Shown here: one piece after another, positions 38,599 through 45,594 of the stretch
Numbering within the stretch: the stretch's first letter is position 1
Layout: every line of letters begins with the position of its first letter
NCBI RefSeq assembly: GCF_000016605.1
Contig: NC_009440.1
Span: forward strand, 1,958,001 to 2,022,000
Reading direction: 5' to 3'
Origin: Metallosphaera sedula DSM 5348
GTDB taxonomy: Archaea; Thermoproteota; Thermoprotei_A; Sulfolobales; Sulfolobaceae
Length of the DNA stretch: 64,000 nucleotides
Made by a program: the position numbers and the translations under genes
The notes under the pieces: generated by a model
What the model was told of the DNA's origin: nothing
Databases searched by the model: none
What the model saw: the letters and a program-made list of their open reading frames with translations, nothing else

Positions 38599-39540
38599 TC
38601 ACTTCAGGATTAAGTTTGCCAGTTTCCTTGCAATTTTAAGGTTGCTGTCGCTGAAGGCCTCTTCTTCCGTTAATCCCTCTTCCTCTGCAAGCAGGAGGGA
38701 CGTGAGACCTGAGAGAAGAACCAAGTAGGCCACGTTCTTCAGCGGTGTGCTCCCTGCAGGAATTATCTGTTCAGCCTTAATCACGGAAAGCGTTACGTAA
38801 TCAATGTCCTGATCCCCAATCACAAAGGGCTGAAGGCTCTGTGCCCTGACGTATGCCTCTAGGTCATTGTGATTCGATTCAGGAATGGGCCCGTAGAAGG
38901 CTGGATATTTGGCAGTCTCATTCAAATCCTGCTTGAACCTTATTGCTACGGGAAAGTATAGGGAGCCGTAAAAGACCGGGATCCTTCCCCTAATCTTGGC
39001 CACCAACCTCTTAGCAAGGTTAAGAGCCCTCTCCTTACCTTCCTCCACTCCCTCTGCCAGCTCCGAAATCCTGTATTGCCCGCTACTCCTCGTGTTCAGA
39101 ATCTTAACGAGGGCCGTGAAAAGGAGGGGGAACCAGACTCTCGTGGGGTAATCTTGACCGTTGCTCATCCTGGCCTGCATGGACAAGTTAACGTGTCTTC
39201 CGCCCTTCTCTCTGCACAGGTTTGCCAGCTTTCCTCCAGCCGAAACGCATATGACGTCCGCCCCAAGCTCAAAGGCCCTTCTGGTTACGATCAAGGTTTC
39301 CACATTGTCCCCGGACCTGCTAAAGGCTAGCAAAGAGAACTTTCCCCTAGCCTTGAATCTTGTGGGATCCCCATTATACACGAGGTAGTCCAATGGAGGT
39401 TCAAGTATCCTTGCCATTTCACCCGGGATGTAACTTGCCCCCATCCCTGTGTAAATCACGTTATCGTACTTGAGGTCCGGAACCTCTATCCTTTCAGCTT
39501 CTCGAAAAAGTTTATCCCAGTCTAGGAAAACATTATGCAT
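38599..39540 (-). CDS. Bifunctional phosphoglucose/phosphomannose isomerase
   Basis: 313 residues, SIS-domain sugar isomerase of the archaeal PGI/PMI family. The substrate-binding GMGASYIPGEMAR near 33, FSRSGDNVETL near 74, and PESNHNDLEAY near 218 with the catalytic Glu/His match Pyrobaculum PGI/PMI. It converts glucose-6-P or mannose-6-P to fructose-6-P. Its ATG lies 8 bases inside the upstream 145-residue gene, and the cysS start follows directly, consistent with one operon. Confidence 0.88.
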   Translation of the reverse strand: MHNVFLDWDKLFREAERIEVPDLKYDNVIYTGMGASYIPGEMARILEPPLDYLVYNGDPTRFKARGKFSLLAFSRSGDNVETLIVTRRAFELGADVICVSAGGKLANLCREKGGRHVNLSMQARMSNGQDYPTRVWFPLLFTALVKILNTRSSGQYRISELAEGVEEGKERALNLAKRLVAKIRGRIPVFYGSLYFPVAIRFKQDLNETAKYPAFYGPIPESNHNDLEAYVRAQSLQPFVIGDQDIDYVTLSVIKAEQIIPAGSTPLKNVAYLVLLSGLTSLLLAEEEGLTEEEAFSDSNLKIARKLANLILK

Positions 39541-39970
39541 TTTTCATCACAAGGGAAATGTTGAACGATGGAGGAGACGAGTTCATTGAGACGGAGATAT
39601 TGTCCATGTTCATTTCCTTAAGGTTCTTCCTTAGGGTAACTACGAACTCGCCCATCAGTTCTGACATTCCCTCAAGGACACTCTCAACCATGTCCCAAAT
39701 CTTACCTGAGAGCAATGAGCTCAAGACTGAGGGTTGCATAAGGTAAGCGTAGAGTAGGTTTACTCTCTGAACGGAACTCAGGAAGCTAACTATGGCTTCA
39801 TCCCAGTTCTTGACCTCGATCCCCTTTTCAAATTTCTCAGCCAACTCTATTATCTTTTTCAATTGAGCTCTCGTAAAGCTCACTATGCCCTGCTCAGCCA
39901 CGCTGAGACCGGTGAAACTTGTCTTCTCTAAATTACTTAAAATCTCCCCAATCCTGGTTGTGGATTTCAT
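39533..39970 (-). CDS. Conserved-looking helical protein, unknown function
   Basis: 145 residues, mostly helical and acidic/leucine-rich, ending in a Ser/Asn-rich strand-like tail (DNISVSMNSSPPSFNISLVM). No domain is recognised. Overlap of 8 bases with the PGI/PMI start indicates coupled translation, so it may serve the same sugar-phosphate step, but this is only context. ATG at 39970 is the start I prefer. Confidence 0.5.
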   Translation of the reverse strand: MKSTTRIGEILSNLEKTSFTGLSVAEQGIVSFTRAQLKKIIELAEKFEKGIEVKNWDEAIVSFLSSVQRVNLLYAYLMQPSVLSSLLSGKIWDMVESVLEGMSELMGEFVVTLRKNLKEMNMDNISVSMNSSPPSFNISLVMKNA

Positions 39971-40022: not shown

Positions 40023-41327
40023 ATGCCTGAGAGTCTTGTGGTACTAGGTGGGGGAGCGGCCGGGATGAGCGCCGCATCCAGGGCGAGGAGACTTAGGCCT
40101 GACCTGAGAATTACGGTTATTGAGTCCACGAAAATGGTGAGTCATGCACCCTGTGGGATACCATACTTCGTGGAGGGTTTGTTCGACGACGAGAACCTCT
40201 TCATGACCTATACTCCCTCATATTTTGAGAGGGAGAGGAAGATAGAGGTGTTAACCAACACCGTGGCCAAGGAAGTTGATCTTGACTCTAGGGTAGTAAG
40301 AACGGATAACGGAAAGGCGCTTGAATATGACTGGCTAGTCGTGTCTCTTGGAGCTCTGCCCAAGACGCTACCCAACGTTAAGGGAAACAGGGTTTATTAC
40401 GTTCATCATCCAGCTCACGCGGTTGAGATCAGAGAGCGGTTGTGGTCCATGAACAAGATAGCCGTGATAGGTGGAGGGATACTTGGGGTGGAAATGGCTG
40501 AGGCGTTGAGCGCTGTGGGGAAGAAGGTTGTCCTAATCCACAGGGGGCCTTACATCCTCAACAAAATGCTGGATCAAGACCTCGGAGACGTGGTCACCAA
40601 ACTTGTTCAGGGCAAGGTCGAGTTACACCTCAACGAGAGCACCGAGGAGATTGGAGAGAATTACGTTAAAACGGACAAGGGGAAGTACCAAGTTGACGGC
40701 GTAGTCCTTGCCCTAGGGGTCACGCCCAACGTGGCCATGTTTAAGGAAAAGCTTCAGCTAGGCACCACTGGCGCAATAAAGACCAATTCACGCATGGAGA
40801 CTTCCGTGAAGGGCGTGTATGCAGCTGGCGATGTGGCAGAGACCACTCACGTGGTATCAAGGAGGGAAGTCTGGATGCCCTTTGCCCCTGTCGCGAACAA
40901 GATGGGGTTTGTGGCTGGTAGTAACATAGGGGGCAAGGTCACGGAGTTCCCAGGTACAGTTGGAAACATGATTACTAAATTCCAGGACATGTTCATAGGA
41001 AAGGTAGGATTAAACGAGATTGAAGCCAAGGAAGTAGGGTTCAGGCCGATCTCTGCAACCATAAAATCAAAAACTAGGGCCAGGTATTATCCAGGTGCTA
41101 AGGACATTTACGTGAAGCTCGTGGCAGATGAGGATAGCAAGAGAATTTTGGGTGGACAAATTGTGGGAGGGGAGGAAGTACTAGGCAGATTGGATTCTGT
41201 TTCTGTGGCCCTCATGAAGCAGTTGACCGTGGAGGAAATGTTCTTTGCGGAGATGGGTTACCTACCAGCGATTTCCCAAGTATGGGATCCGCTAACCGTT
41301 GCTGCTAGGCAACTTCTTAAGGCATAA
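40023..41327 (+). CDS. CoA-disulfide reductase/NADH oxidase-like flavoprotein
   Basis: 434 residues, pyridine nucleotide-disulfide oxidoreductase fold. FAD site GGGAAGMSAASRARR near 9-23; the single redox Cys in SHAPCGIPYF (Cys44), typical of CoA-disulfide reductase and NADH oxidases; NAD site VIGGGILGVEMAEAL near 148-162; second FAD motif GVYAAGDVAE near 263. In Sulfolobales such enzymes keep CoA reduced or oxidise NADH. Start ATG 40023 follows an AT-rich spacer; the NurA-like gene begins 46 bases after the stop with its own TATA. Confidence 0.88.
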   Translation: MPESLVVLGGGAAGMSAASRARRLRPDLRITVIESTKMVSHAPCGIPYFVEGLFDDENLFMTYTPSYFERERKIEVLTNTVAKEVDLDSRVVRTDNGKALEYDWLVVSLGALPKTLPNVKGNRVYYVHHPAHAVEIRERLWSMNKIAVIGGGILGVEMAEALSAVGKKVVLIHRGPYILNKMLDQDLGDVVTKLVQGKVELHLNESTEEIGENYVKTDKGKYQVDGVVLALGVTPNVAMFKEKLQLGTTGAIKTNSRMETSVKGVYAAGDVAETTHVVSRREVWMPFAPVANKMGFVAGSNIGGKVTEFPGTVGNMITKFQDMFIGKVGLNEIEAKEVGFRPISATIKSKTRARYYPGAKDIYVKLVADEDSKRILGGQIVGGEEVLGRLDSVSVALMKQLTVEEMFFAEMGYLPAISQVWDPLTVAARQLLKA

Positions 41328-41373
41328 GTAATACATTATATTTAAATATTTCTATAATTGTTAATATCGTAAT

Positions 41374-42468
41374 ATGGCATCGAGAGGCGGGCTATCCGAT
41401 CTACTTAATAGCATTGTCTCCAAATACATAATCTTCCATTTGGAGAGCCCGCCCTTTAGCCCCATTCTAGACCAAGCACAGGATGTTGACCTTACCTCTT
41501 CCGATGACATAATAAGGGTGGTGGACAGCATACCCAAGGTATCAACAGAGATCGTTGCGGTGGACGGGAGTAGCAGGAGCTTTGTTCTCTCCCAGGGATT
41601 AATTTCGGTCAGCTCCGTGTCTGCAATCTCAAGTTTAAGGGGAATTAAGGGTATGTTCCCCTCATTTGACCCCAGCATGAGTCTTGATCTACAGGAGCCC
41701 TTCATCGCTCTCGCCACTCCCTTTACTGGGCCAGAGAGAATAGAGGACTTTCTTCTTCATCCGGCAGTATCCAGGGTTCAGATGGAGGGAAACCCGTTTC
41801 AACAGGACTTAACTAGGTTAGAGACGGAGCTCCGTTTTTCCTTGGAGACCTCTTCACTGGAGAAGGTGAAGGATAGTCCCCTGGTCCTGGTGGACGGTCC
41901 TCTCTTACCTAAGTTCCTTTACATTAACAAGAGAGTTGCCAATAAACTCCTTCAGAGAAGAAAGGAAGTCCTACAGAAAAATTTTATTGGAATTGTTAAA
42001 AGGGTAAATCACTCTACTGTCTTGATTGAATCACTTAATGAAAGGAAAATCAGAGAAGTCATGATCATGAAATACAAAGTGAATCCAGCCTCATTCTCCA
42101 ACGATGAAGCCTTCTTAATTCACCTTGTGAAAAAGAACTTTAGGTCTCCCTTTAAACCTCTTGTGGTAGGTCCACTCCACGGAAAAGAGGAGGGAACTGA
42201 GATATTTTCCAACTACGTAGTAATTCCATTCCACCCCTTCCTGGAGAGGTTCTCCGTGCTGAGGGTTGAGAGCCTCACTGACTCCCTTGATCCTGGAATT
42301 ATTTTATCTACGCCAATTACCTCTGATGGAATTCCCCTTCCGCTAGCTTTCGCTGATAAGGTGGCCAAGGAGGTATCTAATGCTGTGTTTAACATGTTAC
42401 TCCAGCAGTTGTCAAGGGAAGGTATTCAGTCGAGTTTCTACAGCAGACTGGAGGGATTGGGAGCTTGA
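41374..42468 (+). CDS. NurA-like nuclease, paralog outside an Mre11-Rad50 locus
   Basis: 364 residues with the NurA domain. The metal-site strand EIVAVDGSSRSF carries Asp64, and a second acidic strand, PLVLVDGPLLP, carries Asp174; these are the NurA catalytic positions. NurA proteins resect DNA ends 5'-3' together with HerA. Sulfolobales keep the standard nurA beside rad50, mre11 and herA; here only herA-like follows, with a 4-base overlap (TTGA). It is therefore likely a second NurA. A TATA-like TTTAAATA sits about 30 bases before ATG 41374. Confidence 0.75.
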   Translation: MASRGGLSDLLNSIVSKYIIFHLESPPFSPILDQAQDVDLTSSDDIIRVVDSIPKVSTEIVAVDGSSRSFVLSQGLISVSSVSAISSLRGIKGMFPSFDPSMSLDLQEPFIALATPFTGPERIEDFLLHPAVSRVQMEGNPFQQDLTRLETELRFSLETSSLEKVKDSPLVLVDGPLLPKFLYINKRVANKLLQRRKEVLQKNFIGIVKRVNHSTVLIESLNERKIREVMIMKYKVNPASFSNDEAFLIHLVKKNFRSPFKPLVVGPLHGKEEGTEIFSNYVVIPFHPFLERFSVLRVESLTDSLDPGIILSTPITSDGIPLPLAFADKVAKEVSNAVFNMLLQQLSREGIQSSFYSRLEGLGA

Positions 42469-44267
42469 TTGATGAACTCTACAAGGGCATGAAGGAGAGA
42501 ACCAGTAGGGCCAGAGCCTTGGCAGTAAGCCTAGGGAAGATGATAGGAAAGATTTCCAAGTATATGCCAAACAGGATAGACCAGGAGAGCCTTTACGTAA
42601 ACGCAGTAGTTGATGCTGAAACGTATTACTCTAACGAATACCTTGGTAGGATGGGAATCCTTCTGGGTGCAGTGGACATTAGAACTCTAGAGTTCATACT
42701 GCTTCAAGTTGTTGGGTATGAGAGAAGTGATATCACGTCATCGCTGTTCAACTCAACTGACATCACTCCAAAACTGGTTGAGGACGACGATCCAGGAACC
42801 CTGATAGGAAACGTTATACTTAAGTGCGAGATGCTCACTAGACTTGACCCTCTCGGTAGAGGGGAACCTGTGCCCGCGGACATAATACCTGAACCCCAGT
42901 CACCCGTGATAATCCCCTATCCTGAGATGGTCGAGAGGGCCATGGGGATCAATCGCGGGAAATTGAAACTTGGCTTTCTCGACATTTCCAACTCCGAGGC
43001 AAGGGTCAGTATCCCTCCTGAGGAGTTGAACTTTCATAGTCTGGTCATAGGCACCACAGGGGCCGGGAAGACCTCATTCATTAAGGACGTGATAACCTCA
43101 TTGGTCACTACGGTTGAAGACGAACAGGTGATCATCTTTGATGCCACAGGGGATTATTACCACTCATTCCTCCCACCTGATTTAACCTCAGAACATGTTA
43201 GGAGAGGGATAGAGGACTTCAATAAGCTGAACGGTCCAGTCAACGGGCTACACGAAGATATTCTCTTTCCGATTACTAGTCGTTGGCTAAGGAAGTATAC
43301 TCAGGAGAGAACGGAAGAAGAAATAACCAAGACCTACTATGATCTCTACATCAAACCCCTAGTCAATTACATAGAGAGGAAGGGGATGAAGATTGATGTT
43401 CAGATTAGCGGAAGGAGGATTGAACTCGCCTCAGATTACTGGAAATCCAGCGCCGAGGTCCACCCCTTCTACCTGTCGTTCAGGGAAAACAGACGGATAG
43501 TTCATAAGTTAAACCCATACTTTAGTGAGCAGGCATCCCATTTCCTGAAGATAATTACCTCTCAACTGAAGGACGTCGAGAGCCTGGACGAGTTCATTGA
43601 GAACATGAACGAGGAGAACTTTGAGAAACTGCAGGTCCACAAGAGCACGCGTGAAAATATACTTCGTGGGCTCTACTTGCTCAGGGAAACTGGACTTTTT
43701 GATCTGCGTTCTCCTAGGACGTCCTTGGGAGACCTACTTTCCACCTCTAAGATGTTGACAATTGACCTCTACAATCAGGAGCTCGACGATTTCGCCCAGA
43801 AAATACTCACCTACTATTTCCTGGATAGAATCTTCCAGCTTAGGGAGAGCAAGATGAGAAAGGGCGAGATTAACAGTAAACTGCTCATTATCATAGATGA
43901 GGCCCATAGGTTCTTTCCGTCAAACAGAGGAGGGGAGGAGGACAGCAACTACGTGAGAAGGGTTGCGGGAAAGATATCTGTAATGATGAGGTTAGGCCGT
44001 AGGAGAAGAATAGGGTTCATGTTCTCCACTCACAATCCCTCCGATCTAAGTGATATTATTGTTCAGTTAGCTAACACCAAGTTTGTTTTCAGGACATCTC
44101 TGGACATTGCGGAGAGTTTAGGCGTTCCTAGATCGGAGGGGAAAATATTAAGCTGGGAGAGGAATGGTGTAGCATATATGATTTCGCCATGGCTGAAACA
44201 AGGAAGATTAAAGGTCAGGGTTCCTGTTCCTCCTCCCATTGGCCATTACGATCTCTCTAGGACTTAG
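42465..44267 (+). CDS. HerA-like DNA translocase ATPase, paired with the NurA-like nuclease
   Basis: 600 residues from TTG at 42465. A beta-barrel (HAS-like) N-terminal region precedes Walker A GTTGAGKT (196-203); Walker B LLIIIDEAHRFFP has Asp478-Glu479; an ARRRR-like arginine stretch (LGRRRRIGFMFSTHNPSDL) gives the Arg finger and sensor. HerA of Sulfolobus is about 500 residues, so this one carries roughly 70 extra residues between the Walker motifs (a helical part near 270-410). HerA pumps DNA into NurA's active site. It is followed directly by a third small gene with no gap. Confidence 0.78.
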   Translation: MIDELYKGMKERTSRARALAVSLGKMIGKISKYMPNRIDQESLYVNAVVDAETYYSNEYLGRMGILLGAVDIRTLEFILLQVVGYERSDITSSLFNSTDITPKLVEDDDPGTLIGNVILKCEMLTRLDPLGRGEPVPADIIPEPQSPVIIPYPEMVERAMGINRGKLKLGFLDISNSEARVSIPPEELNFHSLVIGTTGAGKTSFIKDVITSLVTTVEDEQVIIFDATGDYYHSFLPPDLTSEHVRRGIEDFNKLNGPVNGLHEDILFPITSRWLRKYTQERTEEEITKTYYDLYIKPLVNYIERKGMKIDVQISGRRIELASDYWKSSAEVHPFYLSFRENRRIVHKLNPYFSEQASHFLKIITSQLKDVESLDEFIENMNEENFEKLQVHKSTRENILRGLYLLRETGLFDLRSPRTSLGDLLSTSKMLTIDLYNQELDDFAQKILTYYFLDRIFQLRESKMRKGEINSKLLIIIDEAHRFFPSNRGGEEDSNYVRRVAGKISVMMRLGRRRRIGFMFSTHNPSDLSDIIVQLANTKFVFRTSLDIAESLGVPRSEGKILSWERNGVAYMISPWLKQGRLKVRVPVPPPIGHYDLSRT

Positions 44268-44672
44268 GTGAGCATGATGGAAAGATTGGAAAACTTGAAA
44301 TTATCACTTGATCAGTTAAAATTGAGTGGAACAAAGGAGAATTTGATCAAGGTCCTGATTGAAATTAGCAAATTGTTACCACCTTCGGATGACGTTGCAA
44401 TAACCTTGGGAAAGAAGGGAACACACGAATACGTTATAGACAGAAGGGGGTTAGCCATAATCACCACGTCACAGGATGAGTATCTCCCCTTTCTCTCCTC
44501 TTCGGAGAAGAGAATATCCATGGAACAGCTACCAGACGACGTAGCCAAGAAGGTCATGTCTGATATTTCAAGTCTCCTCATTCAGCTAAGGGACATACTC
44601 AAGGCTCAGGCTAGACGCAATCCTTCCTATGGATCGTTAGCCTCAGAGGTAGACTTGATTGTTAAGGGTTAG
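44268..44672 (+). CDS. Small protein in the NurA-HerA cassette, unknown function
   Basis: 134 residues from GTG at 44268, placed immediately after the HerA-like stop with no gap, so it is almost certainly cotranslated with that gene. ATG at 44274 is an alternative start. It is helical at both ends, with a central strand-rich part EYVIDRRGLAIITTS and later KKVMSDISSLLIQLRDIL. No known domain. It overlaps the next (thioesterase) gene. A regulator or adaptor of the NurA-HerA pair is a guess from position. Confidence 0.55.
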   Translation: MSMMERLENLKLSLDQLKLSGTKENLIKVLIEISKLLPPSDDVAITLGKKGTHEYVIDRRGLAIITTSQDEYLPFLSSSEKRISMEQLPDDVAKKVMSDISSLLIQLRDILKAQARRNPSYGSLASEVDLIVKG

Positions 44673-45594
44673 TGATACTGTAGTTAGAACAATAAACATG
44701 GTCCACTATCAACAGACCAACTTCATGGGAAGGCTTCACGGGGGCGATATGCTGAAGTTCCTGGCAGATGCGGGCATGCTAGCATCCATGAAGGTGAGCA
44801 AGGGCCTAACCGTACTGGCCTCCCTAGATCAGGTTCTCTTCAAGAAGGGGGCAAACCTAGGGGACATAGTCTTCGTGGACGCTCGAGTTCTATACGTAGG
44901 TAATTCATCCATGGAGGTGGAAATGAGGGCATCTAGAGGATCTGAGGTTATAGTAACCGCCAGTGGAACTTACGTTAAGGTTAACCAGGACTTCAGGCCT
45001 GTCCCAGTGGGCGAGAAGGTGATGGGTGAGACGGAGGAAGAAAGAGAGGCAATTGAGCTTGCCATACAAAGGAGAAACGACAAGATTCAGAAAATCAGAA
45101 ACAAGAAAGAAATTGCCTGTTCTGAGGACCCAACCAATTTTTTGAGGTATAGGCTGAGTAACACTATCTTCGTCGGCCCAAACATGACCTATGACGGAAG
45201 GGTGATGTCGGCTGGAATGCTCCTCAAGGCCATGGATGACCTAGGAGGGACACTGGCGTTAAGATATAACGGCATAGAAAACTACAGACCGGATCAGGAC
45301 GGAGTTGTCACTGTTGCGGTATCCGACATTTTCTTCTATTCCCCCATAAGGCTAGGGGATATAGTGGAAATGAACGCGGGGATAACATACGTAGGCAAGA
45401 CGTCCATAGACCTCCTGATAAATGTGAACAGGTTAGATGAAACCACACAAGAGTGTAAACACGTGACAACGGCATACTTCACGTATGTGAGGGTAGATCC
45501 TCAAGGAAATAAGAAGGAAATGCCCAGATACGTTCCACAGACGCCACATGAAATAGAGCTGTGGAACGAATCAGTTAGAAGAAGGGGAAGATAA
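44659..45594 (+). CDS. Acyl-CoA thioesterase with two hotdog domains
   Basis: 311 residues from TTG at 44659. Each half is a hotdog fold: RLHGGDMLKFLADAGMLAS in the first and RVMSAGMLLKAMDDLGGTLALR in the second, the helix that contacts the CoA substrate. The C-terminal half carries the matching strands. It hydrolyses acyl-CoA to free acid and CoA, probably of branched or medium chain. It overlaps the small NurA-HerA partner gene but belongs functionally to lipid or acyl-CoA metabolism with the nearby acyl-CoA dehydrogenase. Confidence 0.85.
   Translation: MLRVSDTVVRTINMVHYQQTNFMGRLHGGDMLKFLADAGMLASMKVSKGLTVLASLDQVLFKKGANLGDIVFVDARVLYVGNSSMEVEMRASRGSEVIVTASGTYVKVNQDFRPVPVGEKVMGETEEEREAIELAIQRRNDKIQKIRNKKEIACSEDPTNFLRYRLSNTIFVGPNMTYDGRVMSAGMLLKAMDDLGGTLALRYNGIENYRPDQDGVVTVAVSDIFFYSPIRLGDIVEMNAGITYVGKTSIDLLINVNRLDETTQECKHVTTAYFTYVRVDPQGNKKEMPRYVPQTPHEIELWNESVRRRGR

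What the first reader, a model, noticed from the sequence alone, without database searches (positions are those of the whole stretch)
41374..44672. NurA-like and HerA-like genes plus a third gene, without Mre11-Rad50
NurA-like (364 aa) and HerA-like (600 aa) genes overlap by TTGA and a 134-aa gene follows with no gap. In Sulfolobales the known NurA-HerA pair sits with mre11 and rad50; neither is here. The HerA-like protein is about 100 residues longer than Sulfolobus HerA, mostly between the Walker motifs, and the third protein matches nothing I know. This could be a second, specialised DNA-end or defence-type processing module.
Basis: partly seen in the sequence, partly recalled or inferred. 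Interest (0 to 1): 0.72.

Follow-up and report, generated by a model that had tools for sequence, protein, structure and literature searches.

The report
Second NurA-HerA operon of Sulfolobaceae
This hot-spring archaeon carries, besides its standard DNA-break-repair nuclease and motor, a separate ancient copy of that pair with its own conserved switch and a small companion protein of unknown fold, which suggests a dedicated but still untested DNA-processing job.

Summary
The window (Metallosphaera, single 2.19 Mb contig) has an intact NurA-like/HerA-like gene pair and a 134-aa gene. The canonical herA-mre11-rad50-nurA operon lies 1.3 Mb away, so this is a true paralogue; the genome has four NurA-HerA pairs. 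The window pair forms its own clade, present in 31 of 31 Sulfolobaceae sampled, vertically inherited, in fixed synteny with housekeeping genes, under strong purifying selection, with all catalytic motifs kept. The 134-aa gene directly follows herA in 29 of 31. It is not NurA-HerA-specific: outside Sulfolobaceae its family sits elsewhere and the pair's relatives mostly lack it. In one Sulfolobaceae genome it sits with the downstream thioesterase gene, away from the pair. It matches no known family or PDB fold. The operon has a private promoter element, GTAWTAC-N3-TATA, nearly unique in each genome; the UV-response hexamer is absent. Most likely this is a second, dedicated NurA-HerA translocase-nuclease with a core genome-maintenance role distinct from the Mre11-Rad50-linked pair; the third protein is probably an accessory recruited in the Sulfolobaceae ancestor. 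Paralogous NurA-HerA pairs are already known, so this is a variant, not a new kind. Its function remains inferred.

The parts
41328..41350 (+). Private promoter element: GTAATAC (GTAWTAC palindrome, 41328-41334), 3 nt, then TATA box ATATTTAAATATT (41338-41350), 23 nt before the nurA ATG
   Evidence: Only match in the window, 0 expected; GTAWTAC within 100 nt upstream of nurA in 27/31 genomes versus 2.8% of background windows; in the whole own genome only this site matches GTAWTAC-N3-ATATTTAAA with up to 1 mismatch
41374..42468 (+). nurA-like gene (NurA3), 364 aa; candidate metal-binding residues D64 (41563-41565), E158 (41845-41847), D174 (41893-41895)
   Evidence: Pfam NurA 1.7e-18; D64/E158/D174 invariant across 23 NurA copies including the canonical one; D58 of S. 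solfataricus NurA is catalytic (PMC4641729)
42465..44267 (+). herA-like gene (HerA3), 600 aa, TTG start; Walker A residues 196-203 (43050-43073), Walker B D478-E479 (43896-43901)
   Evidence: Pfam DUF87 2.7e-11 and HerA_C 3e-7; Walker A/B and arginines R509/R512 conserved across 21 HerA copies
43251..43472 (+). Part of the inter-Walker region of HerA3 (residues 263-336), predicted strand-helix-helix-hairpin-strand, the main source of the extra length
   Evidence: Walker spacing 282 versus 209 in the canonical copy; locally confident (pLDDT about 75-90) in an otherwise poor AF2 model
44268..44672 (+). Third gene, 134-aa orphan family (motifs PPSDD, EYxxDRxG, DEYLPF, EKR); predicted alpha2-beta4-alpha3, mean pLDDT 87
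   Evidence: 31/31 Sulfolobaceae; AF2 model; no Pfam, NCBIfam or PADLOC family; no PDB or viral fold match at E<=0.001
44659..45594 (+). Double-hotdog acyl-CoA thioesterase-like gene overlapping the third gene by 14 nt; probably co-transcribed, functional link unknown
   Evidence: 4HBT 1.3e-22; adjacent to the third gene in 28/31 genomes

Best explanation
This is a second, dedicated NurA-HerA translocase-nuclease of the Sulfolobaceae. By analogy with characterised NurA-HerA complexes, a HerA3 hexamer pumps double-stranded DNA from an end into a NurA3 nuclease dimer, which cuts it. The pair split from the Mre11-Rad50-linked pair before the order diversified and has been kept in one chromosomal place in the family with a private promoter, so it most likely does a standing genome-maintenance job on a class of DNA ends that the canonical pair does not serve. 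The 134-aa protein is most likely a small accessory or regulator that came under the same promoter in the Sulfolobaceae ancestor. Shown: paralogy, conservation, intact motifs, operon-like structure, conserved private promoter element. Inferred: complex formation, DNA substrate, physiological role, role of the third protein.
For: Four NurA and the matching HerA genes in the genome, the canonical operon intact elsewhere. NurA3+HerA3 in 31/31 Sulfolobaceae, one 18-row clade in both trees (SH-aLRT 100 for HerA, 91 for NurA), pair types matching between the trees. Catalytic motifs conserved. A 4-nt nurA/herA overlap in 22/31 genomes suggests translational coupling. dN/dS 0.02-0.06. Fixed synteny with cysS, a sugar-phosphate isomerase-like gene and an FAD oxidoreductase; G+C equals the window. 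Canonical herA and nurA are each essential in S. islandicus (PMC4351679), although every Sulfolobaceae genome sampled has this second pair, so it cannot substitute. Exact GTAWTAC-N3-ATATTTAAA occurs at 22 nurA3 promoters and only 2 other places in 31 genomes. The third protein's distances covary most with NurA3 (residual r=0.67; with FAD oxidoreductase -0.11; weak evidence).
Against: No expression, genetic or biochemical data for this pair were found. The UV-response hexamer ANTTTC is absent from the promoter in nearly all orthologues, so a DNA-damage-induced role is not indicated. A 2026 study of T. kodakarensis HerA-NurA questions end resection altogether and suggests degradation of foreign DNA (PMC12977600). 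The third gene's link is broken in G399 and loosened in G405, and its family is separate from nurA/herA outside the family.
Confidence: 0.55

Rival explanations
1. The pair is an antiviral dsDNA-degrading machine: HerA3 threads foreign linear DNA into NurA3, which destroys it, as in CRISPR-linked or stand-alone HerA-nuclease defence systems.
For: HerA3 and NurA3 match the PADLOC 'Type III coevolved' HerA/NurA models (154 and 53 bits) far better than the canonical pair does (74 bits and none). T. kodakarensis HerA-NurA cleaves both strands and was proposed to be antiviral. Bacterial DUF4297-HerA is an antiphage complex.
Against: No cas gene, CRISPR-like repeat or defence neighbour; fixed in all 31 Sulfolobaceae amid housekeeping genes; vertical inheritance and low dN/dS. 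The Csx1-linked pair is another clade. The PADLOC model scores pair 2 of this genome (204 bits) and non-CRISPR pairs of other families (159 bits) as well or better, so it is not specific.
Confidence: 0.2
2. The third gene has nothing to do with NurA-HerA; it works with the overlapping acyl-CoA thioesterase and shares the operon by position only.
For: Third and thioesterase genes overlap in most genomes and are adjacent in 28/31; in G399 they lie together away from nurA-herA. In family f6 the third-family gene neighbours an acyl-CoA dehydrogenase.
Against: In genus g8 (G119, G405) and in G400 the thioesterase is absent next to the third gene, while the third gene stays with or near nurA-herA. 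In other families the third-family gene overlaps an XPF/ERCC4 nuclease gene (6 of 9 f35 loci) or lies near an MGMT-like gene, which points back to DNA repair. Distance covariation is higher with NurA3 (0.67) than with the thioesterase (0.56).
Confidence: 0.35
3. The pair prepares or pumps DNA for export in the Ced/Ups DNA-exchange system, whose donor-side ATPase is unknown.
For: Thermus TdtA with a NurA-like partner is needed for DNA donation (PMC5365140); authors propose HerA-NurA makes the ssDNA for Ced (PMC9905601); the donor ATPase of Sulfolobales is unknown (PMC11868833).
Against: No link to ced/ups genes; the UV-response hexamer of ups promoters is absent; matches to CedD and CedB are far below cut-off (32.8 versus 600 bits, 27.5 versus 700).
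Confidence: 0.07

Closest known systems
Canonical HerA-Mre11-Rad50-NurA operon (S. solfataricus / S. islandicus)
   Same: NurA family with the same D/E/D residues, HerA-type ATPase with Walker A/B, adjacent genes
   Different: No mre11/rad50, gene order nurA-herA, separate clades in both trees, about 73 extra residues between the Walker motifs, about 20% identity for HerA, own promoter, additional third gene
CRISPR-linked nurA-csm6/csx1-herA cluster of Thermoproteales (PMC3396285), a similar one seen here in L114/L115
   Same: Paralogous nurA-herA pair; same broad HerA superclade with long inter-Walker region; better match to the PADLOC 'Type III coevolved' models than the canonical pair
   Different: Different clade; no Csx1/Csm6, cas gene or CRISPR array in or around the window locus
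Other paralogous NurA-HerA pairs of the same genome (pair 2 at 1.025 Mb, pair beside pcm at 2.08 Mb)
   Same: nurA-herA gene pairs without mre11/rad50
   Different: Separate clades; none has the 134-aa gene or the GTAWTAC-TATA promoter element
Thermus TdtA with NurA-like TTC1878 (transjugation)
   Same: HerA-superfamily ATPase beside a NurA-like gene, not for standard repair
   Different: On a mobile element with integrase, restriction enzyme and methylase; homology to HerA3 in particular not tested here
CedB / CedD DNA-import ATPases
   Same: HerA-superfamily ATPases of Sulfolobales
   Different: Far below the NCBIfam cut-offs; no ced genes nearby; CedD and CedB carry transmembrane segments (PMC11868833)

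Membership tests
NurA nuclease | NurA domain (PF09376) above the curated cut-off | tested here: met
   67.5 bits versus cut-off 21
NurA nuclease | Conserved acidic catalytic residues (D58 of SsoNurA and partners) | tested here: met
   D64, E158, D174 invariant across 23 copies (D58 catalytic)
NurA nuclease | Mn-dependent nuclease activity, dimer bound to HerA | not testable with these tools
   Needs biochemistry
HerA (FtsK-HerA superfamily) | HerA central ATPase domain with Walker A, Walker B and arginines | tested here: met
   DUF87 44.4 bits versus cut-off 23.2; motifs conserved
HerA (FtsK-HerA superfamily) | N-terminal HAS barrel | tested here: inconclusive
   N-terminal 150 residues predicted with several strands, but the model is poor (mean pLDDT 59)
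HerA (FtsK-HerA superfamily) | Hexameric ring, DNA translocation | not testable with these tools
   Needs biochemistry or cryo-EM
Canonical HerA of the Mre11-Rad50 operon | NCBIfam HerA equivalog score | tested here: not met
   39.6 bits versus 800 (NF040937) and 37.9 versus 970 (NF040819)
Canonical HerA of the Mre11-Rad50 operon | Operon with mre11 and rad50 | tested here: not met
   Neighbours differ; the canonical operon is elsewhere
CRISPR type III-associated NurA-HerA | Linkage to cas genes, Csm6/Csx1 or a CRISPR array | tested here: not met
   Syntenic housekeeping neighbours in 21 loci; no repeats in the window; the Csx1-linked pair is another clade
CRISPR type III-associated NurA-HerA | Match to the PADLOC 'Type III coevolved' models | tested here: inconclusive
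   154 and 53 bits, but the models match the whole superclade
CedD / CedB | NCBIfam equivalog cut-off | tested here: not met
   32.8 versus 600 and 27.5 versus 700 bits
Three-gene module nurA-herA-third | Third gene adjacent to the orthologous pairs within Sulfolobaceae | tested here: met
   29/31 Sulfolobaceae
Three-gene module nurA-herA-third | Third gene adjacent to the related pairs outside Sulfolobaceae | tested here: not met
   Third-family genes and related pairs are unlinked and rarely in one genome outside the family

The most novel reading that the evidence does not exclude
A three-component NurA3-HerA3-third complex with its own dedicated regulation: the 134-aa protein, whose predicted fold has no match in the PDB, gates or targets the translocase-nuclease and perhaps controls the operon through the private GTAWTAC operator, giving Sulfolobaceae a second DNA-end-processing pathway independent of Mre11-Rad50.
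Probability: 0.2. Interest if true: 0.75.

Novelty: new variant of a known kind. Interest (0 to 1): 0.47.

Why it matters
The NurA-HerA studies of Sulfolobales found here deal with the Mre11-linked pair, but Sulfolobaceae genomes carry 2-7 NurA genes and the pair described here is universal in the family. Whether HerA-NurA really does end resection, defence or DNA transfer is now disputed. A conserved second pair, with a private promoter and an orphan companion protein, in genetically tractable Sulfolobaceae makes division of labour between the pairs directly testable.

Tried and rejected
(1) Main pair merely moved: rejected, canonical operon present. (2) Defence island or CRISPR association: rejected by synteny, lack of repeats and the separate clade of the Csx1-linked pair. 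(3) CedD/CedB membership: rejected by score. (4) Third protein by fold: PUR/whirly-like hits appear in the PDB list, but with TM-score below 0.3 and E near 1, so discarded; a lipothrixvirus protein hit in BFVD (E=0.1, TM 0.40) is not significant. (5) Third protein in viral contigs: none found. (6) UV/DNA-damage promoter motif ANTTTC: absent in nearly all. (7) HerA3 structure: AF2 with 6 sequences too poor (pLDDT 59), so no fold search was run on it. (9) A genome-contig scan with the broad third-family alignment failed for lack of conserved stretches; the narrow one gave 5 named loci. (10) No orthologue locus tag or essentiality call could be found in the open papers; supplements were not available.
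Full report
WHAT IS THERE. The window is C1:1958001-2022000 of a single-contig 2,191,517-base genome. The three ORFs are exactly as reported: nurA-like 41374-42468, herA-like 42465-44267 overlapping it by TTGA, and the 134-aa gene 44268-44672 starting directly after the herA stop. Pfam assigns NurA and the HerA central domain; nothing matches the third protein.

THE CANONICAL PAIR IS ELSEWHERE. The genome has four NurA matches, each with a HerA-type gene near by: herA-mre11-rad50-nurA at 692-699 kb (L013; mre11 and rad50 recognised from their sequences), a nurA-herA pair at 1.025 Mb (L014), a nurA-herA-pcm run at 2.08 Mb (L015) and the window pair. All 31 Sulfolobaceae genomes available have 2-7 NurA matches or more fragments thereof. 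Paralogous nurA-herA pairs are already described for Pyrobaculum, one of them CRISPR-linked with csm6 (PMC3396285). In S. islandicus the canonical herA and nurA are each essential (PMC4351679). Since every Sulfolobaceae genome searched also has the window-type pair, that pair cannot replace the canonical one; this is an inference from two separate results.

PHYLOGENY. In a tree of 45 HerA proteins the window type from Sulfolobaceae is one clade (SH-aLRT 100), far from the canonical and pcm-linked copies, and nested in a larger group with pairs from other families of the order (f2, f4, f6, f10). The NurA tree shows the same pair types, with weaker deep support (window-type clade 91). Both were quick searches with long branches, so deep branching order is not claimed. 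Within Sulfolobaceae the groupings follow genus, as expected for vertical inheritance.

INTEGRITY. NurA D64, E158 and D174 are invariant across all copies; D58 of S. solfataricus NurA, in the same VAxDGxS context, is catalytic. HerA Walker A, Walker B and R509/R512 are conserved. dN/dS against M. javensis is 0.055 (nurA), 0.020 (herA), 0.059 (third) and 0.015 (thioesterase), with dS high, so the absolute values are rough. HerA3 has 282 residues from Walker A to Walker B against 209 in the canonical copy; long regions also occur in the other non-canonical copies (236-353), so this marks the wider group and is not unique to the window. A six-sequence AF2 model gives this region locally confident strands and helices but is poor overall.

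THE OPERON. In 21 of 21 further genomes the order cysS - isomerase-like - 145 aa - FAD oxidoreductase - nurA - herA - third is kept with few exceptions. Over all 31 genomes: nurA and herA overlap by exactly 4 nt in 22; herA and the third gene are adjacent in 29 (gap -32 to 368 nt); the third gene and the thioesterase are adjacent in 28, mostly overlapping. The exceptions cut both ways. In G399 the third gene and thioesterase lie 124 kb from the pair. In G119, G405 and G400 the thioesterase is not next to the third gene. So synteny alone does not decide whether the third protein works with NurA-HerA, with the thioesterase or with neither.

THE THIRD PROTEIN. The family is present in 31/31 Sulfolobaceae, as a single copy apart from one marginal match, and occurs in other families of the order and phylum. 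There it is never beside nurA/herA in the loci read; in f35 it overlaps an XPF/ERCC4 nuclease gene in 6 of 9 loci, in f5 it lies near AK6- and MGMT-like genes (named from sequence), in f6 beside an acyl-CoA dehydrogenase. Conversely, window-type HerA relatives in f2, f4, f6 and f10 are mostly in genomes without it. AF2 gives a good alpha2-beta4-alpha3 model (pLDDT 87) without significant match in the PDB or BFVD, and sequence searches against PDB give only chance hits. After removing a background of neighbouring genes, its evolutionary distances covary most with NurA3 (r=0.67), then the thioesterase (0.56) and HerA3 (0.48), not with the FAD oxidoreductase (-0.11); fast genes can give such correlations, so this is weak evidence.

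A PRIVATE PROMOTER. Upstream of nurA lies GTAATAC-N3-ATATTTAAATATT (41328-41350), with the core TTTAAATA starting 33 nt before the ATG, as for a leaderless transcript. GTAWTAC, itself a palindrome, is found within 100 nt upstream of nurA3 in 27/31 genomes against 2.8% of background windows. Several genera have two copies with a 6-nt spacer; that double site occurs at 9 places in 31 genomes, 8 of them this promoter. The exact GTAWTAC-N3-ATATTTAAA string occurs at 22 nurA3 promoters and 2 other places. The element is not shared by the other pairs, apart from isolated GTAWTAC matches. It is thus a locus-specific cis element and not a regulon signature: a dedicated regulator or autoregulation are the simplest readings, neither tested. 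The UV-responsive hexamer ANTTTC (PMC5817253) is missing in nearly all orthologues.

MECHANISM AND STATUS. By the established biochemistry of NurA-HerA, a hexameric HerA ring feeds duplex DNA to a NurA dimer. With every motif kept, the window pair very probably does the same. What DNA it serves is open. Universal presence, fixed chromosomal place, vertical descent and purifying selection favour a core genome-maintenance role over defence; the wider group's similarity to CRISPR type III-associated HerA/NurA models and the T. kodakarensis results keep the antiviral reading alive. A DNA-export role, suggested by Thermus TdtA-NurA and by the missing donor ATPase of Ced, is possible but has no positional or regulatory support.

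VERDICT. It is a conserved, uncharacterised variant of a known kind of system.

Noticed in passing
window 41324-41373: Locus-private conserved promoter element GTAWTAC-N3-TATA upstream of nurA, with a double-site form in several genera; nearly unique per genome.
   Followed up: yes
L152, L154, L155, L157, L158, L161 (about 6.5-8.1 kb): In another family of the phylum (f35) the third-protein homologue overlaps, in the same direction, an XPF/ERCC4 nuclease gene; a possible second DNA-repair partner of this orphan family.
   Followed up: partly
L114:5248-9527 and L115:4349-8628: Saccharolobus-like genomes have a Csx1 (CARF-HEPN) gene directly followed by a nurA gene with a herA gene convergent to it, resembling the nurA-csm6-herA cluster of Pyrobaculum.
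   Followed up: partly
L209:2-4324 (G078 C1:744-748 kb): A further nurA gene follows a 903-aa protein with a P-loop-like start (WGQGKTTLL, no Pfam hit) and a 211-aa coiled-coil-like protein, overlapping like an operon; possibly an uncharacterised defence or DNA-processing system.
   Followed up: no
window 39533-39970 (-): A 145-aa gene without Pfam hit, divergent from the FAD oxidoreductase gene and conserved in synteny across the family.
   Followed up: no
L015:5646-8693 (own genome, 2.08 Mb): A third paralogous nurA-herA pair is followed by pcm (protein-L-isoaspartate methyltransferase) with overlapping genes; its NurA is short (244 aa).
   Followed up: no
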